Positions 1 to 61,190 of a DNA stretch of 64,000 nt are shown one piece after another. Origin of the DNA: Orobanche coerulescens (lineage: Eukaryota > Streptophyta > Magnoliopsida > Lamiales > Orobanchaceae); assembly GCA_033398695.1 (NCBI GenBank), contig CM065802.1, positions 204,557,096 to 204,621,095 on the forward strand. Direction: 5' to 3'. Each line of letters opens with the position of its first letter. The first letter of the stretch is position 1. The translations under genes were made by a program, and so were the position numbers. The notes below the pieces were generated by a model that saw only the letters and a list, made by a program, of their open reading frames with translations, ran no database searches and was not told where the DNA came from.

Positions 1-632
1 CAAATTACTCGTTAGCGCACGCTATGCACAAGGCTAGCGCACGCTAACCGGACCGAGTATAAATTGACAGCTTAGTCGACTTCTTCATTTGTTCATCTCA
101 TTTCACTCCTTCGGTATTTTTGGGCGATTTGAGCGATTCGGAGAGGGTTCTTCGAGGTGTAATCATCAATCATCATCTTCAAGCTCATCTTTCGTATTTA
201 TCATCATTTCAACATCTTCATCACATCGAATCAAAGGTATTAATCTCTTGGATCTAGAATTTGGATTTTTGGGTTTTCCTTCCGATTTCTTCGTGTAAGC
301 TTGGATTATCATTGGGATATGTTAAGTTATGGATTATCTACTTGGATAAATATATTCCTACGGATTTAATGGTTATTTTCGGAATTGTTTTCAAGAACCC
401 TTGGGGTTGACTTCGGTTAATTGGGGATTTTCCGATTGATGTCGTTATAATCATGAATTATGGATTCCTAATGGATTATTGATATCCTTGAAGTGTTTTG
501 TTAGTTCGAAATACTCATTTTGGTGTGGGTTTCGACATATTCGGGATTGGATATTTCCGAAGTTGTGCGGTCGGTTATGTATTCGTTGGAATGCCTATGA
601 GTTTGATTATCGTTGTTTCGACCCTTGGATTA
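1..632 (+). repeat. G1 5' LTR fragment (U3 end, TATA box, leader)
   Basis: It aligns with 3478-4113 of the 3' LTR with few differences. It begins inside U3 with two palindrome units (13-24, 35-46), followed by the TATA box TATAAA at 58-63. It stops abruptly inside the sequence CCCTTGGATTAG (624-635), where LTR turns into pol sequence. The distal ~1.1 kb of the LTR is absent. Confidence 0.9.
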
Positions 633-2735: not shown

Positions 2736-5203
2736 TGTAATACCCGGTTGTAATTCATAATTATCACTCGGTAATTATCATTCAAGAATTGATACTCGGT
2801 AATTTCATTCATTATTGATCATTTGTCACTCGATTCAGTCATGGTATTCATCATTCGAGTAATTGTATCGTGTATCGATCGTCATTCATCATTAATCTGA
2901 TTGGAGTTTCGTGCCGTGTTTATCATCATTGTCATTTTCGTTGCAAGCTGTGCTTGAGGAGTAGCGCACGCTACATACTCCTTTTAGCGTACGCTAATTG
3001 GGTATAGGTAGCGCACGCTACCGCTCAGCTTTAGCGCACGCTAAGGCTACCTTGGCCGATCCGAAGGTACCGACCGGCAGTGAGAATAATTGTAGCGCAC
3101 GCTACGAGTGGTAAGTAGCGCGCGCTAACGGGTCGTAGTAGCGCACGCTATATGTGTGGAGTAGCGTGCGCTAGAGGCGGATCAGGTTGAGTCCAGTGGC
3201 TACTGGACTGCACCGGGTTTATTCATAGCGCACGCTATGCATTATTGTTAGCGTACGCAACCGATATATTAGCGCACGCTAAATAATGGTTGTAGCGCAC
3301 GCTATCGAGGTTAGATCAGAGGGCGAGATGGTTTTACGGACTCCGATCGGGCGTCAAATATTTCGCTAGCGCACGCTAACAATGGATATTAGCGCACGCT
3401 AGTAGTATGGCCGTAGCGCACGCTACAAATAGGTACGTAGCGCGCGCTACCGTGTTCGGACAAGGTACCGGACTACCCAATTTAGTCGTTAGCGCACGCT
3501 ATGCACAAGGCTAGCGCACGCTAACCTCGGATCGAGTATAAATTGGACGATTAGTCGACTTCTTCATTTGTTCATCTCATTTCACTCCTTCGGTATTTTT
3601 TGGGCGATTTCGAGCGATTCGGAGAGGGTTCTTCGAGGTGTAATCATCAATCATCATCTTCAAGCTCATCTTTCGTATTGATCATCATCTCATCATCTTC
3701 ATCACATCGAATCAAAGGTATTAATCTCTTGGATCTAGAATTTCGGATTTTTGGGTTTTCCTTCCGATTTCTTCGTGTAAGCTTGGATTATCATTGGGAT
3801 ATGTTAAGTTATGGATTATCTACTTGGATAAATATATTCCTACGGATTTAATGGTTATTTTCGGAATTGTTTTCAAGAACCCTTGGGGTTGATTTCGGTT
3901 AATTGGGGATTTTCCGATTGATGTCGTTATAATCATGAATTATGGATTCCTAATGAATTATTGATATCCTTGAAGTGTTTTGTTAGTTCGAAATACTCAT
4001 TTTGGTGTGGGTTTCGACATATTCGGGATTGGATATTTCCGAAGTTGTGCGGTCGGTTATGTATTCGTTGGAATGCCTATGAGTTTGATTATCGTTGTTT
4101 CGACCCTTGGGTTAGTCGTGTTTTGTTGTTTGATACGTGTATTGAACGATTGTTGGTAATTATTGTTATTCAAGGTTGTTCGAGCGATCGGTATCTTGGT
4201 TAGGACGTTGTTCGTGGACGGACATTCTTCATCGGTATTGTGTAAGTTAAATCTTACTCGGTTAAAAGGATACTCATTCCTTTTGTTGTTGATTGCTCAT
4301 AATCATAATTCATTCATCATAATATTAATCATTTTGAGACTTGTAAGTGTCGAATAATCATTTCATTCACGAGGAACGACGGTTCCAAATCTTTTCATTG
4401 GTTTATCAATCACGTCACTATTACTTTCATATCGGTGAGTCATCTTGGCCTTGTCTAATTATTATTCATTGGTTTTCATCATGGTCATTCTCGTTCATGT
4501 GACCTTCCGGTTCATATTGCGCCGGGTGTGGCTATGTGGAATTTTTAGTCGGGCACATGATGGTCATGTATTGGGTTCACCGATACATCGGACCGTGCAC
4601 ACGGTAACGCTTACCTCCGTGAGACTAATTAGGTACAAGGACGGGTGTGTCCGGACATTCGTCTTGTACACTTGCACAGGACATTACGGGCGTACTATGA
4701 TGCTCCTCTTCAGCGTAATTCATAATTAAGAATATTTCATCACTTCAGTTAATTCATGATTGTGTAATTTCAACTCTTGAGGATTGTTGTTACGTAAATC
4801 GACCCGTTGGGGGATTTTGTTTTCAGGTCACGGCAAGGCAAGGGCACGGGAAGAGCATGTTGACGGCGACGAGTCCCAGTGATACTAGTAGGGGGGCCCA
4901 GTCTTTCCGTTTGTTTCAGTCATTTAAGTCATTTCAGTTATTCTGTCAATTGTACTTTTCCGCTGCAAAATTCCGCTTGAGATGTTCATTTATTCAGGGT
5001 GGTGTATTTTATCTCCATATAAAATATACTAGTATTCTGTTTTGTCCTGGTGTAATGTACTTAAACTCCTCATCGGAGTATTTGGTAATATAATGTGGTT
5101 CGGTACTACAATTATATTATTTAATTCATCATTTTCATTCGCCTGGTGGGTCCCAGTCAGGGATCCACGGCACTGTAATATCCGCCTAGTTTGGGGTGTT
5201 ACA
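2736..5203 (+). repeat. G1 3' LTR (2468 bp)
   Basis: It starts TGTAATACCCGG after the polypurine tract and ends GGGGTGTTACA, giving 5-bp TGTAA/TTACA ends. U3 holds the palindrome array (2962-3523) and TATA box (3537-3543). Downstream are a short leader, a candidate splice donor AAAG/GTATTA at 3718 and a candidate acceptor TTTTCAG at 4826, followed by a block conserved with G2 and G3 (GGGAAGAGC, TGTTGACGGCGA). The last 30 bp (5174-5203) begin with a copy of the LTR start, TGTAATATCCG. Small ORFs here have no recognisable domain and I do not call them genes. Confidence 0.92.
2962..3543 (+). promoter_or_regulatory. G1 U3 palindrome array and TATA box
   Basis: TAGCG-YR-CGCTA units begin at 2962, 2985, 3009, 3032; 3093, 3116, 3139, 3162; 3226, 3249, 3270, 3293; 3367, 3390, 3414, 3438; and 3490, 3512. 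That is four quartets and a pair, with pitch 21-24 bp, mostly 23. Seventeen of the 18 are perfect; the unit at 3249 ends CGCAA. The TATA box (TATAAAT) starts at 3537, 25 bp after the last unit start. Spacers are unrelated in sequence. A GTCCAGT...ACTGGAC inverted repeat lies between the second and third quartets (3191-3208). Confidence 0.85.
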
Positions 5204-5477: not shown

Positions 5478-5693
5478 TAACGCACGCTACACATCCTATG
5501 TAACGTACGTTAAGGCTACTCGTTAGCGCACACAATTACATACAGCCTAGCGTACGCTAACCATGCACGGTCAGTACCTCACTGACCAGCCAACTGACTC
5601 GCCTGATGACTTAACGCACGCTAAGTTTCAATCGTAACATACGCTAAATAAGCCCGTTAGTGTACGTTAATTCACATAGTTTAGCGCACGCTA
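5478..5693 (-). repeat. L7 internal palindrome quartets downstream of its TATA box
   Basis: Variant palindrome units start at 5478, 5501, 5524, 5548 and at 5612, 5635, 5658, 5682 (plus-strand numbering), two quartets with 23-24 bp pitch. Several have A in place of the first G (TAACG...), for example 5501-5512, which is the perfect palindrome TAACGTACGTTA. In transcription sense they lie about 850-1050 bp downstream of the TATA-like box. Confidence 0.75.
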
Positions 5694-6527: not shown

Positions 6528-6780
6528 TTTAAATAAAGTTTCTGCACAATAGCTGATTAGCGCACGCTACATACCATTCTTAGCGCACGCTAATAAGCGT
6601 TGACTCCAAATCTGTCCAGGTTCATCCGCGGGAATCTTATCCGGACCCATGTCCCGGCTGGCGCATGTGCTAGCCGGCTAGCTCAATAATTGACTGCCTA
6701 GCGCACGCAAATCCTACATTCGTAGCGTGCGCTAGTTGTAGCCGATAGCGCGCGTTAAGCTACATTCTCAGCGTGCGCTA
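6528..6780 (-). promoter_or_regulatory. L7 U3 palindrome array and TATA-like box
   Basis: Units start at 6769, 6746, 6723, 6699 (a quartet) and 6581, 6558 (a pair). The AT-rich box TTTAAATAAA (6528-6537) follows about one 23-bp step beyond the last unit on the minus strand. This mirrors the quartet-pair-TATA order of G1. Confidence 0.7.
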
Positions 6781-9785: not shown

Positions 9786-12191
9786 TGTAATACCTGATTG
9801 TAAATTCATTCATTATCATTCAGTAATTTTTGTCACTGAGTAAATATTTTCACTCATTGGTAGTCATTCATCATTCATGTTCGTTCACTATGTTCACTGT
9901 TTGGCGTATTTGGAACCTTTGATCAGTTATCATTCGCCTTTCATCATTGTTTGAGGTTCGAGTTGAGAATATTATCATTATGGTCGTTGTTGGTAGACTG
10001 TGTATGTTGATTAGCGCACGCTACACACTATTCTTAGCGCACGCTAATTGTGTGCTGGTAGCGCACGCTATCGGATTTCATTAGCGCACGCTACTAGTGT
10101 TTGTGGCAAGCAGTACAGTAGGCACTGGACTGGATTGGATGATTTGTAGCGCACGCTATGATTGGAAAATAGCCTACGCTAGTTATAAGTTGTAACGCAT
10201 GCTATCGCTTCTTCAACGCACGCTAACGTTTTGGAGACTGACAGTCCAGTAGGAAATGGATTGGGGCAGAAAATTCTTAGCGCACGCTAGTCGTGAGTTG
10301 TAGCGTACGCAAGAGTTATTTGGTAGCGCACGCTAAGCATCAGGTAGCTCGAGCTAAGGTTCGATCAGACTTTGGGACAGTAGGTCCTGCACTCCAGTTG
10401 TTGGGTATCAAACATCCGTTAGCGCACGCTAATTTTTGGGCAGTGCACGCTAAAGAGAAGGCATTAGCGCACGCTACCAAGTTCGTAGCGCACGCTAACG
10501 AAACAGTTAGAACTCACTGGACTGGCCGGTGAACCCACTAGCGCACGCTAAGCTGGGTTTACTATAAATAGGACAGTCAGCCTAGGATTCGTCACTTTTC
10601 ACATCTCACTTCATTTTTGGGCGATTTTGGGCGATTTTGAATGATTTGAGAAGATCTTTTCAAGCTGAAACTACCTATCATCATCTTCAAGCTTTTAGTA
10701 CGGATTAATCATCATTTCATCCTCTCCACTACATCAAATCAAGGTAAACATTTCTTGAATCTAGAATTTGGGGTTTTGAGTGTTTTCCTTCCGATCTCTT
10801 CGTGTTAACTTGCTATTATGATTGAATATATTAGAGATGGATTATCTACCTTGGATACATGTATTCCTACGTATTTATTGGTGTATATTTCAGATTTGAT
10901 GAATATTTTGGAATTTTTTCAAGAACCCTTGATGTTTGACTTTGGTTATTTTGGGGGTTTCCGATTATTGTTGTCGTAACCTTGAGTTGTGGTTTCGTAT
11001 TGGATTATTGATATCATTTAAGGTGTTTTGTTGGATTGTATTACTCATTTGGAGGTTGGTTTCGATATAATTGGGGATGGTTGTAACCAATGGAAGTATG
11101 TTGGCAACGTATTCGTTAGAATATCCCAATGAGTTTGGTTATTATTGTATCGACCTCCGGGTTGGTCGTGATTCATGCTTGATACGTATATTAAGCGTTT
11201 GTTGGTAATTATGTTATTCAAGGTTGTTCGAGCGACCGGTATTTCCCGTTTAGGACGTTTGTTCGAGGAAGGATATTTCATCACCGATATTTGTGTAAGT
11301 TAATACTTACTCGGTTAAAAGGATATTCATCCCTTTCGTTGTTGTTCATTCATATTCATAATTCATTCATGATATATTATTCATGTCGAGACTTGTAATT
11401 ATCAAACTAATTATTCAATTCACGAAGAACGATGGTTCCAATCATTTCAGTGAGCTATCATACATTTCATTATTATTTTATCTCGGTGAGTCATTCTTGA
11501 CCATTGTCGATTTGTTATTCATTGATATTCATCATGGTAACTTTTGTTCTTGTGACCTTCTGGGTTCATATTGCGTGGCCGGGTGGTTACGTGTGGAATT
11601 TTTAGTCGGGCATACGATAGTCATGTGAAGGGTTCACCAACACAATGGAATTTGCACACGGTAACGTGCCTCCGTGAGACTAATTAGGTACAAGGACGGC
11701 TGTGTCCGGACACTCGTCTTGTGCACTGGCACGTCCCATTACGGGCATACTATGATGCCCCTCTTCATCTTGATTTCATGACGTATATATTTAATGACTG
11801 TGCTTGTTCAACTCTTGAGGATTGTTGTTCTGTGTAGCTGACCCTGTTGGGGATATTGTTTTTAGGTCATGGAAAGGCAAAATCATGGGAAGATAACGTT
11901 GACGGCGAGGAGACTCAGTGATACTAGTAGGGGGGCCCAGTCCATCTATTTGTTCCTGCTTTCTTGTTATGTATTTTCCGCTGAGTGTTGTATATTTTAT
12001 CTTCACATGAAATATACATGTATTCTGTTCTCCTGGGTGTGTTGTATTTGAAACTCCTCATCGGAGTAATTGATGATGTAATGTGGTTCGGTACTACATT
12101 TATATTTTGTAATTCATTAATTTCACTCGCCTGGTGGGTCCCAGTCGGGGGTCCACGGCACTGTAATATCCGCCTAGTTTGGGGTGTTACA
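9786..12191 (+). repeat. G2 5' LTR (2406 bp)
   Basis: It begins TGTAATACCTG immediately after ATTGA and ends GGGGTGTTACA. U3 carries the array at 10012-10550 and TATAAATA at 10563-10570. A strong donor-like AAG/GTAAAC lies at 10744 and a T-rich acceptor TTTTTAG ends at 11865. The following block (GGGAAGATAACGTTGACGGC) is conserved with G1 and G3. The last 30 bp (12162-12191) start with a repeat of the LTR terminus. Confidence 0.93.
10012..10570 (+). promoter_or_regulatory. G2 5' LTR palindrome array and TATA box
   Basis: Units start at 10012, 10035, 10059, 10082; 10147, 10170, 10193, 10214; 10278, 10301, 10324, 10345; 10420, 10441, 10465, 10486; and a single 10539, with TATA at 10563 (24 bp on). 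The unit at 10345 is the variant palindrome TAGCTCGAGCTA. GTCCAGT/ACTGGAC-type inverted half-sites lie between quartets (near 10106-10130, 10240-10260 and 10510-10525). Confidence 0.82.
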
Positions 12192-17444: not shown

Positions 17445-18755
17445 TGTAATACCCGATTGTAAATTCATTCATTATCATTCAGTAATTTTGTCACTCAGTA
17501 AATCTTTTCACTCATTGATAATCATTCATCATTCATGTTCGTTCATTATGTTAACTGTTTGGCGTATTTGGAACCTTGGATCAGTTATCATTCGCCTTTC
17601 ATCATTGTTTGAGGTTTGAGTCGAGAATATTATCATTGTCGTCGTTGTTGGTAGCCTGTGTATGTTAGCGCAGGCTACAGACTATTCTTAGCGCACGCTA
17701 ATTGTGTACTGGTAGCACACGCAATTGGATTTCATTAGCGCACGCTACTAGTGTTTGTGGCAAGCAGTCTGGTAGGCACTGGATTGGATTGGATGATTTG
17801 TAGCGCATGCTATGATTGTAAAATAGCGTATGGTAGTTATGAGTTGTAACGCACGCTATCGCTTCTTCAACATACGCTAACGTTTTGGAGACAGGCAGTC
17901 CAGTAGGAACTGGAGTGGGGCAGGAAATTCTTAGCGCACGCTAGTTGTGAGTTGTAGCGTATGCAAGAGTTATTTGGTAGCGCACGCTAAGCATCCGGTA
18001 GCGTGGTCTAAGGTTTGATCAGACTTTGGGACAGTAGGTCCTGGCCTCCAGTTGTTGGGTATCAAACATCCGTTAGCACACGCTAATTTTTGGGCAGGGC
18101 ACGCTAAAGAGAAGGCGTTAGCGCACGTTACCAAGTTCACAGCGCATGCTAACGAAACAGTGAGAACTCACTGGACTGGCCGGTGAACCCGCTCGCGCAC
18201 GCTAATAATCAGGAGCTAGCGCGCGCTAAGCTGGGTTTACTATAAATAGGACAGTCAGCCCAGGATTCGTCACTTTTCACATCTCACTTCGTTTTTGGGC
18301 GATTTTGGACGATTTGAGAAGATCTTTTCGAGCTGCAACCACCTATCATCATCTTCAAGCTTTTAGTACAGATTAATCATCATTTCATCCTCCCCACTTC
18401 ATCAAATCAAGGTAAACATTTCTTGAATCTAGAATTTGGGGTTTTGAGTGTTTTCCTTCCGACCTCTTCGTGTTAACTTGCTATTATGATGGAATATGTT
18501 AGAGATGGATTATCTACCTTGTATACATGTATTCCTATGGACTTATTGGTGTATATTTCGGATTTGATGAATATTTAGGAATTTTTTCAAGAACCCTTGA
18601 TGTTTGACTTTGGTTATTTTGGGGGTTTCCGATTATTGTTGTCGTAACCTTGAGTTGTGGTTTCCTAGTGGATTATTGATATCATTGAAGGTGTTTTGTT
18701 GGATTGTATTACTCATTTGGAGGTCAGTTTCGATATAATTGGGGTTGGTCGTAAC
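17445..18755 (+). repeat. G2 3' LTR, first part (interrupted by G3)
   Basis: It matches 9786 to about 11094 of the 5' LTR. It stops at GTAAC (18751-18755), the TSD of G3. The LTR resumes at 29624. Confidence 0.93.
17666..18248 (+). promoter_or_regulatory. G2 3' LTR palindrome array and TATA box
   Basis: The layout matches the 5' LTR array (first quartet 17666, 17689, 17713, 17736), but it ends in a pair at 18193 and 18217 where the 5' copy has one unit. TATAAATA is at 18241, 24 bp after the last unit. Many units carry point changes such as CGCATGCTA or CACACGC. Confidence 0.8.
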
Positions 18756-21618
18756 TGTAATATCCGACTGTAATTTTCATATTTATCTGTCATTATATAT
18801 TCGGATAAATTGATTATCGTAAATCATTGCATTTAGTATTATGTTGAGGTATTATAAATTTGAACTTCATATCGTTGTTATTTCATTTCATACTCGATGA
18901 TTCGATGTTAATTAGAGAGTTGCATTTTTTGAACTTTTCTTGATGTAGCATACGCTACGTAGCATGATTAACGTACGTTAACCTTATGCCTTAACGTGCG
19001 TAATGTTTCCTATGTTGAGTGCGCTAAGATGGAATCTGACATCAGTTGACTTCAACACGTGAACATGTTATCCGTTGGCATGCATGTGGGTGACGTATGA
19101 GATGTCGTGTCGGCCAGAGTCAACTTTTATTTGCATGCGTAGCCCCTTTTCATTAGCGTGCGCTAATGGCCTGCGGATTCAAGACAGTAGCCACTGTAAG
19201 CCGCTTACGTACGTAATAGTAACCAGTTAGCGTACGTAAGTGTGTTAGCGTACGCTAAAGCTTCCCGATAGCGTGCGCTAAGTCTGCACAGTCTATTTAT
19301 AGGACCAGCCTGTTTTTCATTTCTTAACAACTCTAAACCGATTCTCTCTCCATATATCGTCCCTCTGCACTCCCAAACTGATATCAACCTCCTCTAACTT
19401 GCTTTTAAGCCTTAAATCTTGGAGTGGAGCTCATTTCCTTGAAGATTAGGAGGTGTTCTTGAGCTTGGAGTGTACTTTCTCGTAGCATTGAAGTTGTTCT
19501 TCATTTCTGGAGGTAGGTGTACTTTCTTCTCTGTATTGTTTTCATATTTTGATGTTAGTAACGAATTATACTTCACCTAGAGTTAGATTAATCAAGTAAA
19601 ACATGGTTTTAATTAAACTTTTTCACACTTCTTGATGAATATGATAAATGAGGGTTTGAGGTGGATGTATTCTTGATGATATAGTGATATTAACCATATT
19701 GTAACTATCATACTCATCTTGCTAGACGAATTTAGCTCAGTAGAACATCTTTGAATCGGTTAACCTCACCATAGTTGGATTTAAACAATAAAATTGATAT
19801 CATAAACTGTTTAAACATCATGCTTGATATTCATTTACCTTGAGAAAAACTTGCCAATGTTTGGAGATGGTAAAATGTTTCCTTATTTCAGAAACCTTAG
19901 AAACTTTATCATCATTATGGTTCAGATTCACAAATCCATGAAGATTGATAGGAACACCTTGTTGAATGTTAGGAGATTAGTGTGGTAATTCTAAAACCTA
20001 AGCTAGGTGATTTCTTAAATGATGTTAATGGATCTTCCAGCTTTGTAAAGAATGATTTTGATAACCTTCATGAATATGGTGTAATCTCATAGCTAATAAC
20101 CTTGTTGTAAGCTTAATATTCAACTTAGATGAGAGGTGGATGAATATAATTGTGCAGATTTTGTCCTTTCAACATTTTAATGTTTTGTAAAGTTTAATCA
20201 TCATAAGATGATCTTAACATCATAATTGGTTATTCAACATGTTCTTGATAGAATTCTTATTTATGAAGAATCATGTGAACATTCGGTAAAATTATTGTGA
20301 ACCGATTTTATGGTTGCAATGATGTAAAAAGAACTCTTGGCGTAAGGCTTCGATATTTTGAGATAGCAAACTATTCTAAAGGATTGTAGGGTGTCGCCTT
20401 ACTAATCCTATATTGATCATTATACGAATATGTTATTGAGTAAAATGTATTTCGTTTAAGGTTGATTGTTCGAGTAAACGATAGTAGTCGAGGACCGTTC
20501 GTTCGTTTCGACAAGAAGAGGATTATTCTCGTCTCCCTGTTGAGGCAAGTTATCTTGCTTGGTTATAATGATGATTAGATTCTTGTGATGGTTATACATT
20601 TCATGTGTATGAACTGTTTATGTAATGTTTGTCGTGATTTGACATTGTCCTTGACGTTATTCCATTTTCGTCATGGGGTTGCATTCCCAAGTACGTCGCT
20701 TTGAATCGTTGATCTCATTGGTCTTTATTTTCACTTCGGTGAGTTTTCTTGATCCTTAATCGGATATGTGATTTATTGAATTCGTTGTCATGTTGTATCG
20801 TGACATATCCGGAATCATATTTGCATTCCGATTGGTTATTGTGTAGGATTTTTAGCGAGGCACATATATAGTCATGCGTGGATATTATTCCGTATTGGAC
20901 TGTGCACACGAGACGTAGTTCGTAAGGCTAATTAGGTACATCGTCCCACGTATATCCTGGATTCCGTATATGGGGTGGACATGTGCACTGACACATTTCC
21001 AGATCGGGCGTACTGTGATGTCCATCTTGAGCCATATTGTTAATCGTTCATAGTCCATGTATGATTGAATGTGTTCGACGGTTTGTGACCGATTGTTTCG
21101 TACGCCCGAGGGGTATGATTAATATTCAGGATGTTTTCCTTGAGATCTATATATGTGAATTGTATAATGTCGGAAGAATTAATTATCATGTATATCTGAC
21201 CCTGTGTTTTGGGCGAAATACTTGTATTGTAAATTAGGTCGAGGCAAAGGCAAGGCACGGGAAGAGCATGTTGACGGCGAAGGGTTCGAAGGATACTAGT
21301 TCGGGGGACCCAAATCATTTGTTGTCCGGTTATGTTAAACCGTGTTATGTTATTTTATTTCCGCTTCATTTAAATTACTATCTGGTTGTAGTGGTATTGA
21401 AGTATTTTCCATCCCCATATGGTTTATACTTGTATTTCGGATCTTGTGTATCATAAGGCCGTTGGCCATATTTTTAATAAACTCCTAATCAGAGTAATGA
21501 CTAGTTATTATGGTTCGGTATCACAAGTAATGCTTATTTAATCTGTTTTTGGATATCGGCTGGTGGGTCCTAGTGTGGGGTCCACGGCACTGTAATAGCC
21601 ACCTTTTGGGGTGCTACA
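18756..21618 (+). repeat. G3 5' LTR (2863 bp)
   Basis: It begins TGTAATATCCGACTG and ends GGGGTGCTACA (one change from TTACA). U3 carries the array and TATTTATA box. A donor-like GAG/GTAGGT at 19513 and an acceptor-like TTAG ending at 21237 bracket about 1.7 kb. The block after the acceptor (GGGAAGAGCATGTTGACGGC) matches G1. The final 28 bp (21591-21618) start with TGTAATAGCC. Confidence 0.93.
18946..19301 (+). promoter_or_regulatory. G3 5' LTR palindrome array and TATA box
   Basis: Units start at 18946, 18969, 18992, 19015 (exact 23-bp pitch); 19131, 19154; and 19205, 19228, 19246, 19269. TATTTATA is at 19294, 25 bp on. The centre is mostly TG or TA here rather than CA. Several units are altered but still self-complementary (TAACGTACGTTA, TTACGTACGTAA). 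Confidence 0.8.
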
Positions 21619-21623
21619 GAAGA

Positions 21624-21635
21624 TGGTATCGGAGA
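21624..21635 (+). other. G3 primer binding site
   Basis: TGGTATCGGAGA lies 5 bp after the LTR and resembles the initiator tRNA-Met PBS TGGTATCAGAGC with two changes. Confidence 0.8.
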
Positions 21636-22058
21636 GTGTTGCTTCGTTTTTCTTTAAGAGTCGTTGTATAATGAACTAGTATCAAGAGACCTTCGTGTCA
21701 TGTGTGACCTGTGTGCCTAACCCTACGAGCCAAATACGGTATGTACTTTATGAGCCATGATTTAATTACTGGCATGATATTGATATCGGAATGGATCTCT
21801 TTGTTGATCTTGTTATTTCGAGGATTTGTGACAGGATTTATCTGATTAATAATCCGAGAAAAATGTTGAATTGATTATATGATTGAAATTGTTCGACTTG
21901 ACGCCGATATAATATTCGGTGCGACATTCGTGGTGTCAATAATTAATTGTGAACCGTTTCCTTGAATATATGGTTCCTTGTTACTATTAACTTAGCGGAA
22001 ATTTTAAATAGTATCTTGAACTGTACTTATGGTTATCATTATGATTGATTCTTTCAGT
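21636..22058 (+). other. G3 untranslated leader
   Basis: AT-rich, with no credible ORF. It ends in the TTTCAG that precedes the gag ATG in both G2 and G3. Confidence 0.6.
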
Positions 22059-23340
22059 ATGGAAAGAAATCTGAGAGGTCGTGGCAGAGGGGGACGAGGC
22101 CGCGGAAGGGGCCGAATCCCGATACCTCGAGCCAACAGACGCGCGAATGTGGATCATAGTTCCGCAGACAGTGGTTCACCTTCTAGGGAACAATCGCACC
22201 AGAGTGGGCGTGAGGATGCGCGTGTCGATCCTTACATTGTGATGCAGGGCATGATAACTCAGATGACCCAGATGGGTCAATTAATGGAAGCTATGCAGAG
22301 AGCCACTACTGGACAGCAACAGGGGCCTCATCCTCCTCTTGTGCTTGGCGGACCCGTGAGTCGGATCATCAGCGACATCTCTCGCCAGCGACCTCCGACC
22401 TTTGAAGGCTCCTCTGAGACTGCTGACATTGTGCATTGGATCGAGCATTTTGAGAAACTTTTCGAGATGGTGGACTTCCCGGAAGAGAACCGCGTCTCGG
22501 TAGCCGCGTACTATCTTAGCAAAAGCGCTCATACCTGGTGGCTTTCAGTGAGGCCAGCTGATGGTGTTTATACTTGGGAGGAATTTAAAAACCTCATGAT
22601 AGACCGTTACTATCCAGGGCCACTCCATGAGGCCAAACTGTCAGAACTGCTGAACCCGAACCCATCTGAAGACGATGATGTGTTATCTGTTGCCGAGAAA
22701 TTCCAGGCACTCCTTCCTTTCACCACGATAATTATCCGAACAGAGGCTGATAATATCAAATACTTTCTTAAGAGGCTTAAACCCCGAATGAGAATGCAGC
22801 TGTTAAATCACCACTGTACTACCCTACCAGAGTTCATCGAGAAAGCTCTGGAGTATGAACTCACCGCGAAGGATATTTCCAAGAAACAACCACAGTCCAA
22901 CAACAAAAGATCCAGGACCCAGAGCCAGACTGAGAGTAATCGGGGGACATTCAGGAAGCTTCAGTCATTGCCAAACCCTTCTGATCGACCACCCATGGCG
23001 TCGAAGCCAGCCGGATCGCACTCTCGAGCGGTTCCCTCGTCCGTGGTGTGTCATAACTGTGGAGACCAGGGGCATGTCAACTTCAAATGCCCAAAGCCTT
23101 CCATCACATGCCATACTTGTGGCAAGAATGGTCACCATGCTCGCTTTTGCAGGAGTGGGCCCGGACATGAACCAGTAGCGTCTCATACTCCAGTTCAGTC
23201 CTCTGTCCAGAACCGGGCGCCTCCGTCTGCTTCCTATCAGACCACCGGGGCGAATAAGGGAATGGGCCGTGGGAATCAAAGTGGTACACCTAGTGCCGGA
23301 GCTGCGAAACCCAGGATTTACGAGATGAAGAAAGCTGACG
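22059..23340 (+). pseudogene. G3 gag (reading frame intact, fused to broken pol)
   Basis: I chose the ATG at 22059 (MERNLRGRGRGGRGR) because it aligns with the G2 gag start; an upstream in-frame ATG at 22029 adds ten unrelated residues. The gag domain follows (RQRPPTFEGSSETADIVHWI, VAAYYLSKSAHTWWLS, YYPGPLHEAKLSELL, LLNHHCTTLPEFIEKALEYE). Two complete CCHC knuckles are at about 23050-23155 (CHNCGDQGHVNFKC and CHTCGKNGHHARFC). The protein would bind and package element RNA. Gag has no stop in this copy, so a gag-only product is conceivable. I call it a pseudogene because it is only the start of a polyprotein frame that fails in protease. Confidence 0.85.
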
Positions 23341-23993
23341 ATCTCGAGGCCAGCATGATTTCAGGTATACTCGAGATCCACTCCCAGCCTGTGTGTGTTC
23401 TTTTTGATACCGGTGCTTCACACTCCTTTATATCTTCTTCTTGTTTGAGTAATTTGCCTCTAGACCATGTTATCAATTGTGAACCTTACGTGATTGGTCT
23501 ACCCGATGGTAGAAGAATTATTGGAAATCGTGAAGTCCAGACTGTCCGATTCGCATGAACGACTGTGAGTGGTTGTCAAATCTGATTGTAGTCGATTTAC
23601 CTAAGGATGATATAATCTTGGGTATCGATTGTATGGATCATCATGATGCCATACTTAGTGTCCGCAAGCGAATGGTAACTGTCACTTCTGATGATGGCTT
23701 CGAGTGTATTTTTCGAGGTGATAATCCCAGTCGTTCCGGGAGAGTCATAAGCGCTATGAAAGCAGTGAAACTGCTTAATCAAGGGTGTATTGGATTGGTG
23801 CTACATAACCAAAACACCTGATCGACCAGTTGAATTGGCCGACATTCCGGTAGTCCGAGACTACCCAGACGTATTTCCAGAGGAGTTGCCAGTCTTACCA
23901 CCTCATCGTGACGTGGAGTTTATTATTGAGTTAGAGCCAGGTACATCCCCACTTTCAAAAGCACCGTATCGTATGGCTCTGACTGAGATGTAG
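23341..23993 (+). pseudogene. G3 protease and RT lead-in, two frameshifts and a TAG
   Basis: The gag frame runs into protease (LFDTGASHSFIS, IGLPDGRRIIG) and shifts after GNREVQT, ending at TGA 23556-23558. The sequence goes on in a second frame (LIVVDLPKDDIILGIDCMD) and shifts again near 23795 to a third ([33 protein letters not shown]). That frame ends at TAG 23991-23993, the same codon position as in G2. The DTG triad is intact, but the second half of the domain cannot be translated with it. Confidence 0.88.
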
Positions 23994-26720: not shown

Positions 26721-26737
26721 TTTCGAGGACAAAACTC

Positions 26738-26754
26738 TTTTTAAGGGGGGAGTA
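26738..26754 (+). other. G3 polypurine tract
   Basis: TTTAAGGGGGGAGTA directly precedes the 3' LTR start TGTAATATCCG. Confidence 0.82.
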
Positions 26755-29618
26755 TGTAATATCCGAATGTAATTTTCATATTTATCTGTCATTATATATT
26801 CGGATAAATTGATTATCGTAAATCATTGCATTCAGTATTATGTTGAGGTATTATAAATTTGAACTTCATATCATTGTTATTTCATTTCATACTCGATGAT
26901 TCGATGTTAATTAGAGAGTTGCATTTTTTGAACTTTTCTGTTGATGTAGCGTACGCTACGTAGCATGATTAACATACGTTAATATTGTGCCTTAACGTGC
27001 GTAATGTTTCCTCTGTTGCGTGCGCTAAGAGGGAATCTGACATCAGTTGACTTCAACACGTGAACATGTTATCTGTTGGCATGCATGTGGGTGACGTCTG
27101 AGCTGTCGTGTCGGCCAGAGTCAACTTTTATTAGCGTGCGTAACCCCTTTTCATTAGCGTGCGCTAATGGCCTGCGGATTCAAGACAGTAGCCACTGTAA
27201 GCCGCTTACATACGTAATAGTAACTAGTTAGCGTACGTAAGTGTGTTAGCGTACGCTAAAGCTTCCCGATAGCGTGCGCTAAGTCTGCACAGTCTATTTA
27301 TAGGACCAGCCTGTTTTTCATTTCTTCACAACTCTAAACCGATTCTCTCTCCATATATCGTCTCTCTGCACTCCCAAACCGATATCAACCTCCTCCAACT
27401 TGCTTTTAAGCCTTAAATCTTGGAGTGGAGCTCATTTCCTTGAAGATTAGGAGGTTTTCTTGAGCTTGGAGTGTACTTTCCCGTAGCATTGAAGTTGTTC
27501 TTCATTTCTGGAGGTAGGTGTACTTTCTTCTCTGTATTGTTTTCATATGTTGATGTTAGTAACGAATTATACTTCACCTAGAGTTAGATTAATCAAGTAA
27601 AACATGGTTTTAATTAAACTTTTTCACACTTCTTGATGAATATGATAAATGAGGGTTTGAGGTGGATGTATTCTTGATGATATAGTGATATTAACCATGT
27701 TGTAACTATCATACTCATCTTGCTGGATGAATTTAGCTCAGTAGAACATCTTTGAATCGGTTAACCTCACCATAGTTGGATTTAAACAATAAAATCGATA
27801 TCATAAAGTGTTTAAACATCGTGCTTGTTATTCATTTACCTTGAGAAAAACTTGCCAATGTTTGGAGATGGTAAAATGTTTCCTTATTTTAGAAACCTTA
27901 GAAACTTTATCATCATTATGGTTCAGATTCACAAATCCATGAAGATTGATAGGAACACCTTGTTGAATGTTAGGAGATTAGTGTGGTAATTCTAAAACCT
28001 AAGCTAGGTGATTTCATAAATGATGTTAATGGATCTTCCAGCTTTGTAAAGAATGATTTTGATAACCTTCATGAATATGGTGTAATCTCATAGCTAATAA
28101 CCTTGTTGTAAGCTTAATATTCAACTTAGATGAGAGGTGGATGAATATAATTGTGCAGATTTTGTCCTTTCAACATTTTAATGTTTTGGAAAGTTTAATC
28201 ATCATAAGATGATCTTAACATCATAATTGGTTATTTAACATGTTCTTGATAGAATTCTTATTTATGAAGAATCATGTGAACATTCGGTAAAAGTATTGTG
28301 AACCGATTTTATGGTTGTAATGATGTAAAAAGAACTATTGGCATAAGGCTTCGATATTTTGAGATAGCAAACTATTCTAAAGGATTGTAGGGTGTCGCCT
28401 TACTAATCCTATATTGATAATTATACGAATATGTTATTGAGTAAAATGTATTTCGTTTAAGGTTGACTGTTCGAGTAAACGATATTAGTCGAGGACCGTT
28501 CGTTCGTTTCGACAAGAAGAGGATTATTCTCGTCTCCCTGTTGAGGCAAGTTATCTTGCTTGGTTATAATGATGATTAGATTCTTGTGATGGTTATACAT
28601 TTCATGTGTATGAACTGTTTATGTAATGTTTGTCGTGATTTCACATTGTCCTTGACGTTATTCCATTTTCGTCATGGGGTTGCATTCCCAAGTACGTCGC
28701 TTTGAATCGTTGATCTCGTTGGTCTTTATTTTCACTTCGGTGAGTTTTCTTGATCCTTAATCGGATATGTGATTTATTGAATTCGTTGTCATGTTGTATT
28801 GTGACATATCCGGAATCATATCTGCGTTCCGATTGGTTATTGTGTAGGATTTTTAGCCAGGCACATATATAGTCATGCGTGGATATTATTCCGTATTGGA
28901 CTGTGCACACGAGACGTAGTTCGTGAGGCTAATTAGGTACATCGTCCCACGTATATCCTAGATTCCGTATACGGGGTGGACATATGCACTGACACATTTC
29001 CGGATCGGGCGTACTGTGATGTCCATCTTGAGCCATATTGTTAATTGTTCATAGTCCATGTAAGATTGGATGTGTTCGACAGTTTGTGACCGATTGTTTC
29101 GGACGCCCGAGGGGTATGATTAATAGTCAGGATGTTTTCCTTGAGATCTATATAAGTGAATTGTATAATGTCGGAAGAATTAATTATCATGTATATCTGA
29201 CCCTGTGTTTTGGGCGAAATACTTGTATTGTATTTTAGGTCGAGGCAAAGGCAAGGCACGGGAAGAGCATGTTGACGGCGAAGGGTTTGTAGGATACTAG
29301 TTCGGGGGCCCAAATCATTTGTTGTCCGGTTATGTTAAACCGTGTTATGTTATTTTATTTCCGCTTCATTTAAATTACTATCTGGTTGTAGTGGTATTGA
29401 AGTATTTTCCATCCCCATATGGTTTATACTTGTATTTCGGATACTGTGTATCATAAGGCCGTTGGCCATATTTTTAATAAACTCCTAATCGGAGTAATGA
29501 CTAGTTATTATGGTTCGGTATCACAAGTAATGCATATTTAATCTATTTTTGGATATCGCCTGGTGGGTCCCAGTGTGGGGTCCACGGCACTGTAATTGCC
29601 GCCTTTTGGGGTGTTACA
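26755..29618 (+). repeat. G3 3' LTR (2864 bp)
   Basis: It matches the 5' LTR along its whole length with scattered substitutions and few indels. It ends GGGGTGTTACA before GTAAC. Its acceptor-like site is a better TTTTAG (near 29232) than in the 5' copy. Confidence 0.94.
26947..27303 (+). promoter_or_regulatory. G3 3' LTR palindrome array and TATA box
   Basis: Same layout as 18946-19301. The first unit is the perfect palindrome TAGCGTACGCTA (26947). The last unit starts at 27270 and the TATTTATA box follows at about 27295. Confidence 0.8.
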
Positions 29619-29623
29619 GTAAC

Positions 29624-38159: not shown

Positions 38160-38241
38160 TAGCGCACGTTAATCACTTAACGTAGCGTGCGCTAAGTTGC
38201 TCTCGTTAGCGCGCGCTAGCCAGTAAGCTTAGCGTGCGCTA
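38160..38241 (-). repeat. G4 internal palindrome quartet (left LTR)
   Basis: Units at about 38160, 38183, 38206 and 38230 (TAGCGCACGTTA, TAGCGTGCGCTA, TAGCGCGCGCTA, TAGCGTGCGCTA), 23-24 bp pitch. They lie about 700 bp downstream of the TATA box in transcription sense, inside the candidate intron. Confidence 0.75.
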
Positions 38242-38915: not shown

Positions 38916-39432
38916 TTATATAGAATACATTACTAGCGTGCGCTAACATCTCATATTTAACGTACGCAACAGCCTTAGCGTACGCTAACTGACTTTTGTT
39001 AGTGTGCGCTATCGCAGTCCAGAGGCTACTGTCTGGCTTCGTACATGTGCTTACGTACGTAACGCCCATGCATTAGCGTACGTAACTTACACTCTCTAAC
39101 GTACGCAAGTCCTTGCGTTTAGCATGCTCTAATATCAGTTGACTCGTTTGTCTGTATGCTCCGAAGACTAGTCCACACGCCAAAAGTGCTGACAAGGATA
39201 CGATTCCTTTTTGTCCGATATACAGTTAGCGTGCGCTAATCAACATGCATTAGCGTGCGCTAACACTACATTACAACATCCGTTGACTTATCAGAACATG
39301 CGCCGAAAGTGGCCTGGTCCACGCGTAGATTCCTTCTGAGTTGTTCTTCACTAGCGTACGCTAAGTTATGTCCGTAGCGTGTGCTAAACCTGCACGATAG
39401 CGTGCGCTACTCGTGATTATTAGCGTGCGCTA
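38916..39432 (-). promoter_or_regulatory. G4 U3 palindrome array and TATA box (left LTR)
   Basis: Palindrome units run from 39421 down to 38934 on the minus strand, with TTACGTACGTAA variants near 39052, then the TATA box (TATATAAGG on the minus strand, 38914-38922). A GTCCAGA...CTGTCTGG inverted motif is near 39016-39037. Confidence 0.8.
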
Positions 39433-39665
39433 ATAATGTTATACTTAGCCATTTCTAACTTTTCTCGTCCGTCTCGACATACTGGATACGTATACTTGAC
39501 GCACTATATCCTCTAATACAATTGTCGACCAAGTACGACAATTATACCGATACTGACATCTCAGTCCTTCATTTATTTTATCTATACTGTACAGATTCCA
39601 CGCTGTACAATATAACTCGGATAAAATAATATTAAACAACGGTAGTAGAAGTTCCGGATATTACA

Positions 39666-43543: not shown

Positions 43544-44041
43544 TAGCGCACGATATTCATGCATAATGCACGCTATCGCGTGATTAGCGCACGCTACGTT
43601 TATAGGTTAGCGTACGCTAGTGCGCATGTGATCGGAAGGAATACGTGTGGACCCTACCGCTGCGCGCACGCTCGTAAGTCAACGGTTGTTGTCTGAAGTA
43701 TTAGCGCACGCTAAAATATTAGGCTTAGCGCACGCTAACTATGTATCACCAACAAGGAATCTTATCCTTGCCGATGTTGTCGGAATATGGGGCGAGTGGT
43801 AGGTGAACACCGTAGTAAGTCAACTTCGGATAGCGCACGCTAAGAGTAAGGACTTGCGACGCTAGACATGATGATTTACGACGTTAATGCATGGGCATTA
43901 CGTACGTAAGGTAGTTTACGAAGCAAGACAAGTAGCCTCGATCGCGATAGCGCACGCTAACAAAGTCGATTAGCGCACGCTAAGGCTAGCGCACGCTAAA
44001 CATAAGGGTTTAGCGCACGCTAGTGGTGCATTCTATATAAA
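43544..44041 (+). promoter_or_regulatory. G5 5' LTR palindrome array and TATA box
   Basis: Units include 43544, 43564, 43585, 43608; 43702, 43725; 43831, 43853, 43876, 43898; and 43948, 43971, 43987, 44011. TATATAAA follows at 44034, 23 bp after the last. TTACGTACGTAA is one of the units (43898). Pitch is 16 bp at one step and 20-24 bp at the others. Confidence 0.8.
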
Positions 44042-44753: not shown

Positions 44754-44832
44754 TAGCGCACGCTACGCCATCGCCTAGCGCGCTAACGGGAGCAACTTAG
44801 CGCACGCTACGTTAGGTGATTAACGTGCGCTA
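44754..44832 (+). repeat. G5 internal palindrome quartet (5' LTR)
   Basis: Four units at 44754, 44776, 44798 and 44821. The second has lost 2 bp (TAGCGCGCTA) relative to the 3' LTR copy. They lie about 720 bp downstream of the TATA box. Confidence 0.78.
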
Positions 44833-47670: not shown

Positions 47671-48173
47671 TAGCGCACGCCGATATTCATGCATAACGAC
47701 GCTATCGTGCGTGATTAGCGCACGCTACGTTTATAGGTTAGCGACGCTAGTGCGCATGGTCGGAAGGAATCTGCGTGTGGACCCGGCCGCTGGCGCACGC
47801 TCGTAAGTCAACGGTTGTTGTCCTCGAAGTATTAGCGCACGCTAAAATATTAGGCTTAGCGCACGCTAACTATGTATCACCAACAAGGAATCTTATCCTT
47901 GCGATGTTGTCGGAATATGGGGCGAGTGGTAGGTGAACACCGTAGTAAGTCAACTTCGGATAGCGCACGCTAAGAGTAAGGACTTGCGACGCTAGACATG
48001 ATGATTTACGACGTTAATGCATGGGCATTACGTACGTAAGGTAGTTTACGAAGCAAGACGGTAGCCTCTCGGATCGCGATAGCGCACGCTAACAAAGTCG
48101 ATTAGCGCACGCTAAGGCTAGCGCACGCTAAACATAAGGGTTTAGCGCACGCTAGTGGTGCATTCTATATAAA
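47671..48173 (+). promoter_or_regulatory. G5 3' LTR palindrome array and TATA box
   Basis: Same arrangement as in the 5' LTR, with the last unit at 48143 and TATATAAA at 48166 (23 bp on). Some units have lost one or two bases (for example TTAGCGACGCTAG near 47738). Confidence 0.8.
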
Positions 48174-48885: not shown

Positions 48886-48965
48886 TAGCGCACGCTACGC
48901 CATCGCCTAGCGCGCGCTAACGGAGCAACTTAGCGCACGCTACGTTAGGTGATTAACGTGCGCTA
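48886..48965 (+). repeat. G5 internal palindrome quartet (3' LTR)
   Basis: Four units at 48886, 48908, 48931 and 48954, 22-23 bp pitch: two TAGCGCACGCTA, one TAGCGCGCGCTA and one TAACGTGCGCTA. Confidence 0.8.
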
Positions 48966-51030: not shown

Positions 51031-53388
51031 GATCCAGCGCCCTCAGCATAGATCACACGATCCCATCGGATCAACACAACATAAACAACACAATTATGCA
51101 TACACATATGCAAATCAATATGTTGATCAACATGAACAACATAACATGAACTACAATATGACAAATCAACTAAGACGACCTCATGTTCAACAACATGAAT
51201 GACAATATGCATGATCAAATCACTAACACTAACCGAATCGATAAAAGATACTTGCCCTGAGTCCTTCGGGAGAAATCTCGATGTCAAACCATCACCGACG
51301 ATTATTCGCGATGCTCGGCGATCCAAACATACCATGGACTACAGATACTCATATCCTCGTATTTTATCACAACATATCCTCGATACCCAATTATGCCAAT
51401 AACCAAGGTAAATCATATACAGTACGATTTAACTTCTAGAATCGGAAAGACAACATAAAATCCAAATCTCCAGGGTTTACAATAATCATCATCGCTATAT
51501 GCATTATAAACGAAATGAAACTGAAACCATTCATTAAACATTATAACTGAGCAAGTAATAACTTGCCTCGATACCGATGAAGCCGTCAGCAATTCCATTG
51601 CCGTCATCTACAAGCTCCTCGGCCCTGACCAATGCATTTCACAAACATACTCGAACACGGCCGCAACATACGGTTATAATCACCGATCAATAATATCAAC
51701 CTATTGAAGTAATCAATTAACACATTTCCGATAATAATCAACAACCGATATAACCAATCAACAAACTCAACGGTTCTACAATATCTCGGTAAAACATAGT
51801 CTGTACAATTCAACTCGAACCAGCACGAATTCATAACCACAACACGAAAATACTGCACTGTCTGTCTACTTAGTGCATGTTAATGACTTAACGTAGCGTG
51901 CGCTAAGTTGATCTCGTTAGCGCGCGCTAGCCAGTAAGCTTAGCGTGCGCTAATGCTGTACGGATGCATGTTTTTCAGATACTAATCAACATATGGCGAT
52001 TATCAAGAACACTAAGTGATTCTAAATCATGATCATAGATATCAAAACAACGAAATCCGATATCCTTTAACATATAAGTAATCATCCAACCCTTAATCCA
52101 ATTCTTATATTCAAATATCATCTTCTTCCTCAAATATCAACATCATGAACACCAAGAACCTTAACAACACTCCCCTAATCTAACATTACAGAGATTAATC
52201 ATCAACAATGATATCAACATCCGCAAAAGAGAAGAAGGATTCACCAACTTATCTCAAGAAAACGAACTACATAATTCAAACCACACGAATCATATCAATA
52301 TCATCATACTCCGGTAATCCATCTCATAATCATGCTTGTCAACTTGTTTATGTAATAATCATCAACTCAAGAACGTCAACATTCAATCCAAAACGAAATC
52401 CAAAGATGAAGAGTGATTACCTTTATGAAGGAATGGATTGATTTCCAAGGTTGAATCCATTTCCAAGAATCACCAATGATTTCAAGAACAAAGCTTTAAT
52501 CTATGATTTCCATCTTTAATCTTGTTAAAGAGGATCATCCCTCAGTGTTTAGGAACTCCAAATGTCCTCCCAAGGTTCTCTCTATCGGGTGAAAGGAAAG
52601 AAATAGACGAAATGCTTCATAATACCCGTCTGTCCCCTTATATAGAATACATTACTAGCGTGCGCTAACATCTCATATTTAGCGTGCACAACAGCCTTAG
52701 CGTACACTAACTGACTTTTGTTAGCGTGTGCTATCGCAGTCCAGAGGTTACTGTCTGGCTTCGTACATGTGCTTACGTACGTAACGCTCATGCATTAGCG
52801 TACGTAACTTACACTCTCTAGCGTACGCAAGTCCTTGCGTTTAGCGTGCGCTAATATCAGTTGACTCGTTTGTCTGTATGCTCCGAAGACTGGTCCACAC
52901 GCCGAAAGTGCTGACTAGGATAAGATTCTTTTTTTGTCCGATATACAGTTAGCGTGCGCTAATCAACATGCATTAGCGTGCGCTAACACTACATTACAAC
53001 ATCCGTTGACTTATCAGAACATGCGCCGAAAGTGGTCTGGTCCACGCGTAGATTCCCTCTGAGCTGTTCTTCACTAGCGTACGCTAAGTTATGTCCGTAA
53101 CGTGTGCTAAACCTGCACGATAGCGTGCGCTACTCGTGATTATTAGCGTGCGCTAATAATGTTACACTTAGCCATTTCCAACTTTTCTCGTCCGTCTCGA
53201 CATACTGGATACATATGCTTGACGCACTATATCCTCTAATACAATTGTCGACCAAGTACGACAATTATACCGATACTGACATCTCAGTCCTTCATTTATT
53301 TTATCTATACTGTACATATTCCACGCTGTACAATATAACTCGGATAAAATAATATTAAACAACGGTAGTAGAAGTTCCGGATATTACA
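51031..53388 (-). repeat. G4 LTR, right copy, second part
   Basis: It resumes GATCCAGCGCCC after the second CATCT and matches about 37320-39665. It ends AGTTCCGGATATTACA before TATGG. Internal quartet units remain at 51871-51951, the first badly altered (TAGTGCATGTTA). Confidence 0.9.
52634..53155 (-). promoter_or_regulatory. G4 U3 palindrome array and TATA box (right LTR)
   Basis: Units run from 53144 to 52656 (last quartet 52722, 52698, 52680, 52656), with a TATATAAGG box on the minus strand near 52634-52642. A GTCCAGA...CTGTCTGG inverted motif is near 52740-52760. Confidence 0.8.
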
Positions 53389-61061: not shown

Positions 61062-61190
61062 TTATATATACTGTCAACAGTTAGCGCACGCTAAGGTATG
61101 TGTAGCGTGCGCTAACGGCTGTACAATGCAGTCCAGAACCCTCTGCCAGATCCGTTAGCGCGCGCTAATATATGTATTTAGCGTGCGCTA
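61062..61190 (-). promoter_or_regulatory. G6 palindrome units and TATA box
   Basis: Units start at 61179, 61156 and 61103, 61082 (two pairs, pitch 23 and 21). TATATATAAG on the minus strand (61061-61070) follows the last. Between the pairs is GCAGTCCAGA ... TCTGCCAGA, related to the inverted motif of the other arrays. Confidence 0.8.

What the first reader, a model, noticed from the sequence alone, without database searches (positions are those of the whole stretch)
2962..3543. Quartet-phased palindrome arrays (TAGCG-YR-CGCTA, 23-bp pitch) leading into the TATA box, shared by at least six gypsy LTR families
In G1 the 12-bp palindrome starts at 2962, 2985, 3009, 3032 / 3093, 3116, 3139, 3162 / 3226, 3249, 3270, 3293 / 3367, 3390, 3414, 3438 / 3490, 3512, then TATA at 3537: four quartets, a pair, then TATA one step further. 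G2 has the same 4+4+4+4+2 plan (second copy of the pair kept in its 3' LTR). G3, G4, G5, G6 and L7 use the same unit, pitch and TATA spacing with fewer or rearranged groups. Spacers of ~11 bp are unrelated in sequence, so this is not a simple satellite: palindrome and phasing are kept while the rest drifts. Such a layout fits cooperative binding of a dimeric factor along one face of DNA, a methylation-sensitive switch (four CpGs in the CG-centred form), or target sites of an anti-silencing protein, by analogy with the short repeated motifs bound by VANC proteins in VANDAL transposons. I know of no description of this motif in plant LTRs. Its function is inference.
Basis: partly seen in the sequence, partly recalled or inferred. 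Interest (0 to 1): 0.92.

Follow-up and report, generated by a model that had tools for sequence, protein, structure and literature searches.

The report
Quartet binding-site arrays in retrotransposon promoters
Several related jumping genes in what looks like a broomrape-type parasitic plant carry, just before their promoter, strictly spaced groups of four copies of a short palindrome that looks like the landing site of an unidentified paired DNA-binding protein, and the sites stay conserved while the DNA between them changes almost beyond recognition.

Summary
TAGCG-YR-CGCTA occurs 93 times exactly and 151 times with up to 2 mismatches, against 2.7 expected. All 93 exact copies lie in segments I took as gypsy LTRs. 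Sites sit mostly 23-24 bp apart, in runs that never exceed four. In 11 of 12 arrays (6 of 7 elements) a TATA box starts 23-25 bp after the last site starts. (2) Between related families sites stay 82-97% alike while the rest of the array falls to 44-67%, yet between the two LTRs of G2 both are 92%. Selection therefore acts on active source elements only. (3) Motif CpGs of resident copies decay like other LTR CpGs, against lasting VANC-like protection. (4) Some gaps between quartets hold a second inverted repeat (tentative). Best reading: a U3 enhancer of cooperatively filled, probably methylation-sensitive sites for an unidentified, probably host-encoded dimeric activator. The pitch is not 'one face' of B-DNA. 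The factor is unknown; no bench, methylation or genome-wide data were available.

The parts
2962..3523 (+). G1 3'-LTR U3 array: quartets at 2962-3043, 3093-3173, 3226-3304, 3367-3449 and pair 3490-3523
3537..3542 (+). G1 TATAAA, 25 bp start-to-start after the last site
3190..3209 (+). Second (B-type) inverted repeat centred between quartets 2 and 3 of G1 (32 bp from the centre of either neighbouring site); coordinates worked out
   Evidence: p 0.010 against 200 shuffles of that gap
2736..5203 (+). G1 3' LTR (TGTAATACCC...GGTGTTACA) behind a PPT and a chromodomain-like C-terminus
13..63 (+). Remnant of the G1 5' LTR: last pair of sites plus TATA
10012..10568 (+). G2 5'-LTR array 4+4+4+4+1 and TATAAA at 10563-10568
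17666..18246 (+). G2 3'-LTR array 4+4+4+4+2 and TATAAA at 18241-18246
18946..19301 (+). G3 5'-LTR array (4,1,4; last quartet steps 23,18,23) and TATTTATA
26947..27302 (+). G3 3'-LTR array (4,2,3) and TATTTATA
6528..6780 (-). G4 U3 array (4+2) and TATTTAAA 34 bp on
5478..5693 (-). G4 second group (4+4), over 800 bp downstream of its TATA
38917..39432 (-). G5 U3 array, first LTR copy (4,2,4,4) and TATA
38160..38241 (-). G5 second quartet, about 0.7 kb downstream of TATA
52639..53155 (-). G5 U3 array, other LTR copy, and TATA
43544..44039 (+). G6 U3 array, first LTR (4,2,1,4), and TATA
44754..44832 (+). G6 second quartet, first LTR
47671..48171 (+). G6 U3 array, second LTR, with small indels in motifs (runs 1,1,1,2,1,4), and TATA
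48886..48965 (+). G6 second quartet, second LTR
61065..61190 (-). L7: two pairs of sites (plus a 4-mismatch site) and TATATATAA

Best explanation
The arrays are the upstream activating region of U3 in a clade of plant Ty3/gypsy, probably chromodomain, retrotransposons. Each 12-bp palindrome (14 bp with a preferred T and A outside) is one site for a protein that binds as a dimer and bends or kinks DNA at the central pyrimidine-purine step. Dimers pack end to end, one per 23-24 bp, in units of four or two. They act together with factors at the gaps (a second inverted repeat, and W-box-like AGTCAAC in four families) and place an activation surface one pitch upstream of TBP. The factor is most likely a host protein, because elements without recognised genes carry the arrays too and no candidate gene was found in the elements. 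CpG methylation of the sites in settled copies probably lowers binding and is the off state. Shown: sequence, spacing, TATA distance, YR rule, conservation between families with no such conservation inside elements, CpG-biased decay. Inferred: protein, dimer, bending, activation, methylation sensitivity.
For: TATA spacing of 23-25 bp in 11 of 12 arrays. 93 of 93 exact copies in LTR segments, 80 of them in 8.7 kb of U3-like sequence. With exact arms, 93 of 93 centres are CA, TG, TA or CG; other arm spacings of 0-8 nt give 3 hits against 93 at spacing 2. Between families, sites differ 29/208 against spacers 69/127 (G1-G2a) and 12/154 against 36/89 (G5a-G6a). Within four LTR pairs (parts of the LTR for G2 and G5), sites differ 42/693 and spacers 14/397; McDonald-Kreitman-like odds ratio 0.13, p 3e-9. 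Relative to LTR outside the array, sites run at 0.38 (G1-G2a) and 0.70 (G5a-G6a) between families but 2.5 within elements (figures). With sites called in one family only: 0.82-0.97 identity in sites against 0.44-0.67 in the rest of the array between families, 0.92 against 0.92 between the two G2 LTRs. Array length 550 against 551 bp in G1 and G2b although spacers differ at 57%. Within elements motif CpGs change at 26/235, motif non-CpG at 16/458.
Against: No factor identified; no expression, binding or methylation data. In G5a-G6a the sites (12/154) are not significantly better kept than the neighbouring LTR outside the array (44/394, p 0.27, first 900 bp), though they are over the longer piece (12/200 against 321/1706, p 1e-6) and in G1-G2a (p 6e-9). 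So part of the contrast there is that spacers diverge unusually fast. In resident copies motif positions change faster than LTR outside arrays (42/693 against 194/8135, p 4e-7), also outside CpG (16/458 against 134/7504, p 0.019); the non-CpG part is unexplained. Some quartets lie about 0.7 kb or more downstream of TATA. Family-specific CA over TG polarity in sense (G1 13:1, G2a 14:0, G5a 10:1, G6a 12:1; G3 0:3, G4 2:7, L7 2:1) is not explained by a symmetric dimer. Families share ancestry, so they are not independent samples, and alignments at this divergence are partly guided by the sites.
Confidence: 0.6

Rival explanations
1. Target array of an element-encoded or domesticated anti-silencing protein (VANC-like): binding strips methylation and lets the element be transcribed.
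For: Dense short motifs in the non-coding part of a TE, CpG-rich, shared by related families; VANC works through motif density (PMC5735166, passages). G6, with the lowest LTR divergence, shows only 1 of 67 motif CpG positions changed, so protection in the youngest copies is not excluded.
Against: No extra protein domain in the ORFs tested; longest LTR ORF 149 aa without a Pfam hit. Motif CpGs decay as fast as other LTR CpGs (26/235 against 60/631). VANC motifs are same-orientation and amplified as tandem repeats; here the spacers are unrelated.
Confidence: 0.12
2. Host silencing or tethering site: a host repressor, or a chromatin or nuclear-organisation protein, recognises the arrays and the elements cannot lose them.
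For: Palindromic arrays bound by dimeric proteins also serve as repressor or tethering sites elsewhere (recalled: bacterial operators; the EBNA1 arrays of Epstein-Barr virus).
Against: Selection keeps the sites in the transposing lineage, which favours benefit to the element; a purely repressive site should be lost. The tight TATA phasing suggests promoter function.
Confidence: 0.13
3. The conserved unit works in RNA (hairpins in the U3 part of the transcript, e.g. packaging or 3'-end formation).
For: Inverted repeats can form short stems, and U3 is present at the 3' end of the genomic RNA (established knowledge).
Against: A 2-nt loop is too small, so the stem would be only about 4 bp; the centre is limited to YR, which RNA pairing does not ask for; spacing is tied to the TATA box. 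No RNA fold was run.
Confidence: 0.04
4. A decayed satellite: the array arose by tandem duplication and the motif is the slowest part.
For: TRF reports three rows over two weak arrays in G1; gaps between quartets resemble each other mildly (z above 0 in 28 of 28 comparisons).
Against: Spacers in the same slot of different quartets are unrelated (mean z 0.15 and -0.36); in resident copies the motif does not decay more slowly than spacers, so it is not intrinsically slow.
Confidence: 0.05

Closest known systems
ONSEN (ATCOPIA78) LTR with heat-responsive elements bound by HSFA2
   Same: A plant LTR carries inverted-repeat sites for an oligomeric host activator in its promoter (PMC3907296, passages).
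   Different: ONSEN has a heat response element nTTCnnGAAn and an LTR without CG sites; here up to 18 CpG-rich palindromes per U3 in quartets, factor unknown.
Tnt1 U3 with BII boxes (tobacco)
   Same: BII boxes bind defence-induced host factors, and the promoter is a target of transcriptional gene silencing (PMC3316501, passages).
   Different: Copia superfamily (recalled); no palindrome quartets described in the passages seen.
VANDAL / VANC target arrays (Arabidopsis MULEs)
   Same: High-density short motifs in TE non-coding DNA (PMC5735166, PMC10398659, passages).
   Different: The VANC21 motif YAGTATTAY lies in one orientation, is spread by tandem repeat formation and has an element-encoded reader; none of these was found here.
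Tekay chromoviruses of Orobanche
   Same: Tekay-clade gypsy elements make up about 10-13% of diploid Orobanche genomes (PMC4381496, abstract and passages); the G1 tail has a chromodomain-like match.
   Different: That paper's main text has 0 occurrences of 'promoter' or 'motif'; U3 architecture is not described there.
EBNA1 site arrays at EBV oriP (recalled, no call)
   Same: Arrays of palindromes for a dimeric protein that act as an enhancer.
   Different: Unrelated virus and protein; analogy of layout only.

Membership tests
Ty3/gypsy LTR retrotransposon | gag, protease, RT, RNase H and integrase in gypsy order between LTRs | tested here: met
   Pfam hits RVP_2, RVT_1, RT_RNaseH, Integrase_H2C2, Ty3_capsid for ORFs in G1-G3 (no single ORF holds all); LTR termini, PBS and PPT. 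G4 and L7 are LTR pieces only; the one G5 internal ORF tested gave no domain; G6 has only about 470 bp inside.
Chromovirus (Tekay-like) | C-terminal chromodomain and clade by RT tree | tested here: inconclusive
   G1 tail matches Chromo E 5.5e-4, 20.2 bits, below the curated 25.1 cut-off. No RT tree was built; 'Tekay' is recalled from the sequence pattern and the Orobanche literature.
VANC-target array | Element-encoded VANC-like protein | tested here: not met
   None in the ORFs tested of the window; the rest of the genome could not be searched.
VANC-target array | Motifs spread by tandem repeat formation | tested here: not met
   Spacers unrelated between quartets in G1 and G2b; other elements not tested this way.
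VANC-target array | Loss of methylation over the targets | not testable with these tools
   No methylome; only the indirect CpG decay test, which speaks against lasting protection.
U3 enhancer built of clustered TF sites | Repeated sites close upstream of the TATA box | tested here: met
U3 enhancer built of clustered TF sites | Sites bound by a factor and needed for activity | not testable with these tools
   Needs binding and reporter assays.
Satellite / tandem repeat | Whole units similar, not only a core | tested here: not met

The most novel reading that the evidence does not exclude
The layout is a silencing-proof enhancer grammar. The element keeps a multivalent platform for one dimeric factor but breaks every conserved stretch into 12-14 bp blocks set 23 bp apart, with spacers that drift, in G5-G6 even faster than the neighbouring LTR (40% against 11%). 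No 24-nt window, the size of RdDM siRNAs, then stays alike between families, so siRNAs made against an old silenced family cannot silence a new one in trans, while the factor still reads the shared quartets. The 'four, never five' rule would be the reading unit of a previously undescribed cooperative complex.
Probability: 0.12. Interest if true: 0.93.

Novelty: new variant of a known kind. Interest (0 to 1): 0.72.

Why it matters
Plant LTRs are known to borrow host factors, but in the cases I know through a few sites. Here up to 18 sites per U3 follow a two-level grammar (23-bp pitch, quartets at 131-141 bp period in G1, TATA one pitch on) that survives after the sequence between the sites has become almost unalignable. 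That gives a defined probe for fishing out an unknown plant DNA-binding protein, a natural test of how site number and spacing set enhancer output, and a way to ask how gypsy elements became abundant in the genomes of parasitic broomrapes.

Tried and rejected
Satellite reading: rejected. 'One face of the helix': rejected, mean phase 71 degrees at 10.5 bp per turn; only a helical repeat near 11.5 bp would put the sites in register.

YR centre as a mere relic of CpG decay (CG to CA/TG to TA): considered. It would give only these four dinucleotides, but without constraint transversions should also appear while spacers are at 54-57% divergence in G1-G2; none in 93.

Known plant factors: recalled motifs only (BZR CGTGCG fits the CA/TG forms but not TA or CG; SPL GTAC fits only TA; FHY3/FAR1, CAMTA, E2F do not seem to fit). 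No motif library was available, so this is no test.

Same array elsewhere: the exact pair pattern gave 1 stretch in viral contigs (L001) and 1 in genome contigs (L002, Aurantiacibacter). Each has just two copies in the locus held and looks unrelated. No plant genome collection is on hand.

Gap elements: palindrome score over 22 gaps 122 against 99.9 +/- 5.3 in mononucleotide shuffles, 0 of 200 reach it. Only 5 of 22 gaps are individually at p <= 0.025; G2a and G2b are copies of one LTR; and the best palindrome of one G5 gap is a degenerate site of the main motif. So the B element is tentative. AGTCAAC is in 4 of 7 arrays; shuffles give on average 0.12 7-mers shared by four or more, 3 were seen, but G3, G5 and G6 are related. 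W-box is a recalled name.

Spacer acceleration: relative to LTR outside the array, spacers run at 3.6 (G5a-G6a) and 1.5 (G1-G2a) between families, and 1.5 within elements, so only the G5-G6 pair shows an excess.

In print: the 12-mer TAGCGCACGCTA is in 0 papers of the library. Six 10-mers of the motif are in 53 papers, 40 listed; no listed title concerns an LTR promoter, 13 were not seen. Topic searches. Papers were seen as listings or passages only (PMC11656987 too); supplements were not read.

Full report
What was checked. In the 64-kb window there are 93 exact copies and 151 with up to 2 mismatches, against 2.7 expected; no shuffle exceeded 8. All 93 exact copies lie in LTR segments totalling 32.6 kb, and 80 of them in 8.7 kb of U3-like sequence. 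For two of those segments, G4 and L7, I had to assume an outer limit.

What carries it. Self-comparison and LTR ends (TGTAATAyCC...GGTGTTACA) show nested gypsy elements: G1 (3' LTR 2736-5203, truncated 5' remnant); G2 (LTRs 9786-12191 and 17445-18755 continued at 29619-30754); G3 (18756-29618, flanked by GTAAC, inserted in a G2 LTR); G4 (minus strand, 6934 downwards); G5 (minus strand, 36129-53388, a large-LTR element without recognised coding domains); G6 (43234-51025, inserted in a G5 LTR); and L7 (minus strand, near 61 kb). Pfam places ORFs of G1-G3 in Ty3/gypsy; three other ORFs tested in the same call gave copia-type domains and carry no arrays. A chromodomain match in G1 is below cut-off, and a G2 internal ORF gave only a sub-threshold Mlf1IP match. 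G1 and G2 LTRs are about 72% alike, G5 and G6 about 78-92% by main stretch; G3 shares 3' parts with G1/G2, L7 shares its end with G5/G6, and G4 matches others only over arrays. So there are about five LTR groups, probably of one clade. With the G3 gag, the nine best of 38 hits are Orobanche gracilis or O. minor proteins, the top four at 63-68% identity over 60-85% of the query. The host is therefore probably an Orobanchaceae species (inference). A second search with a G1 pol piece gave general plant gypsy hits, Tanacetum first (best 120 of 7983 listed).

The grammar. Of 60 non-redundant steps, 34 are 23 bp, 15 are 24 bp and 6 are 21 bp. Runs are four (19), two (6), one (5) or three (1), never more than four. 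Quartet starts are 131-141 bp apart in G1. A TATA box starts 23-25 bp after the last site in 11 of 12 arrays and 34 bp in G4. A short step (16-18 bp) recurs at the same place in the last quartet of G3, G5 and G6, which points to common descent. G1 and G2b arrays are 550 and 551 bp long. G4, G5 and G6 have a second group about 0.7 kb or more downstream of the TATA box.

The site. Positions inside the motif hold 1.2-2.2 bits, with weak T before and A after; spacers hold little. With exact arms the centre is CA 54, TG 23, TA 9, CG 7 and nothing else, 93 of 93, and the arms are set at spacing 2 and practically no other. A strict pyrimidine-purine step at a dyad is a usual sign of DNA kinked by a dimer (established knowledge; inference here). 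In sense orientation CA prevails in G1, G2, G5 and G6 but not in G3 or G4; I cannot explain this polarity.

Selection. Between families, site positions differ at 13.9% and spacers at 54.3% (G1-G2a), and at 7.8% and 40.4% (G5a-G6a). Between the two LTRs of the same insertion, pooled over G2, G3, G5 and G6 (for G2 and G5 only part of the LTR), sites differ at 42/693 and spacers at 14/397. The 2x2 contrast has odds ratio 0.13, p 3e-9. Calling sites in one family only gives the same picture, 0.82-0.97 against 0.44-0.67, and 0.92 against 0.92 within G2. Against LTR outside the array: sites are kept better in G1-G2a (29/208 against 119/325) and over the longer G5a-G6a piece (12/200 against 321/1706). 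They are not significantly better kept over its first 900 bp (12/154 against 44/394, p 0.27), where spacers are unusually fast (36/89). Within elements sites change faster than LTR outside arrays (42/693 against 194/8135). So, relative to how fast they mutate when idle, the sites are held back in elements that transpose and not after landing. Caveat: alignments at such divergence are partly guided by the sites, and the families are related.

Methylation. Inside elements CpG positions outside arrays change about five times faster than non-CpG (60/631 against 134/7504), and motif CpGs are no exception (26/235; p 0.52). That fits methylated resident copies, argues against a lasting anti-silencing shield, and leaves a methylation-sensitive activator site as the simple reading. 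G6, with the lowest LTR divergence of the four, has only 1/67 motif CpG changes against 17/289 outside arrays, so protection in the youngest copies is not excluded.

Gaps. Three gaps of 52-53 bp hold a strong inverted repeat near the midpoint (G1 gap 2, G2a gap 1, G2b gap 2), and the 22 gaps together exceed shuffles. All 28 gap-gap comparisons in G1 and G2b are positive. AGTCAAC recurs in the long gaps of G3, G4, G5 and G6. This points to a composite enhancer but is weaker evidence.

Interpretation. Best: U3 enhancer made of quartets for a host dimeric activator, 0.6. Rivals: anti-silencing target, repressor or tether site, RNA element, decayed satellite. Nothing here identifies the factor. 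No similar array was found in the two collections scanned, which hold viral contigs and bacterial and archaeal genomes, not plants; the whole-genome search did not complete.

Noticed in passing
43234-51025: G6 is an element with 3.66-kb LTRs around only about 470 bp of internal sequence (PBS at 46901), sitting inside an LTR of G5, itself a large-LTR element without recognised coding domains.
   Followed up: partly
43544-44022 against 47671-48154: The two G6 LTRs differ by several 1-2 bp indels inside CG-rich motifs (6 gap columns in motif positions), which looks like assembly or base-calling error at (methylated?) CpGs rather than evolution.
   Followed up: no
5478-5693, 38160-38241, 44754-44832, 48886-48965: A second quartet group about 0.7 kb or more downstream of the TATA box in G4-G6; in three of the four listed (not 48886-48965) CAGACAG follows in sense. 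Function unclear (internal enhancer or second promoter).
   Followed up: partly
37180-37314, 43096-43228, 45681-45816, 49814-49949: A 71-72 bp head-to-tail dimer shared by G5 and G6 LTRs.
   Followed up: no
whole window: CpG observed/expected is 1.06 over a TE-rich window although CpG decays fast in resident LTRs, suggesting young elements or strong CpG renewal.
   Followed up: partly
L002:396-429: Aurantiacibacter xanthus has two TAGCGCACGCTA 22 bp apart between the facing 3' ends of two ORFs (one a 413-aa, by eye transporter-like, ORF ending at 427); probably unrelated.
   Followed up: partly
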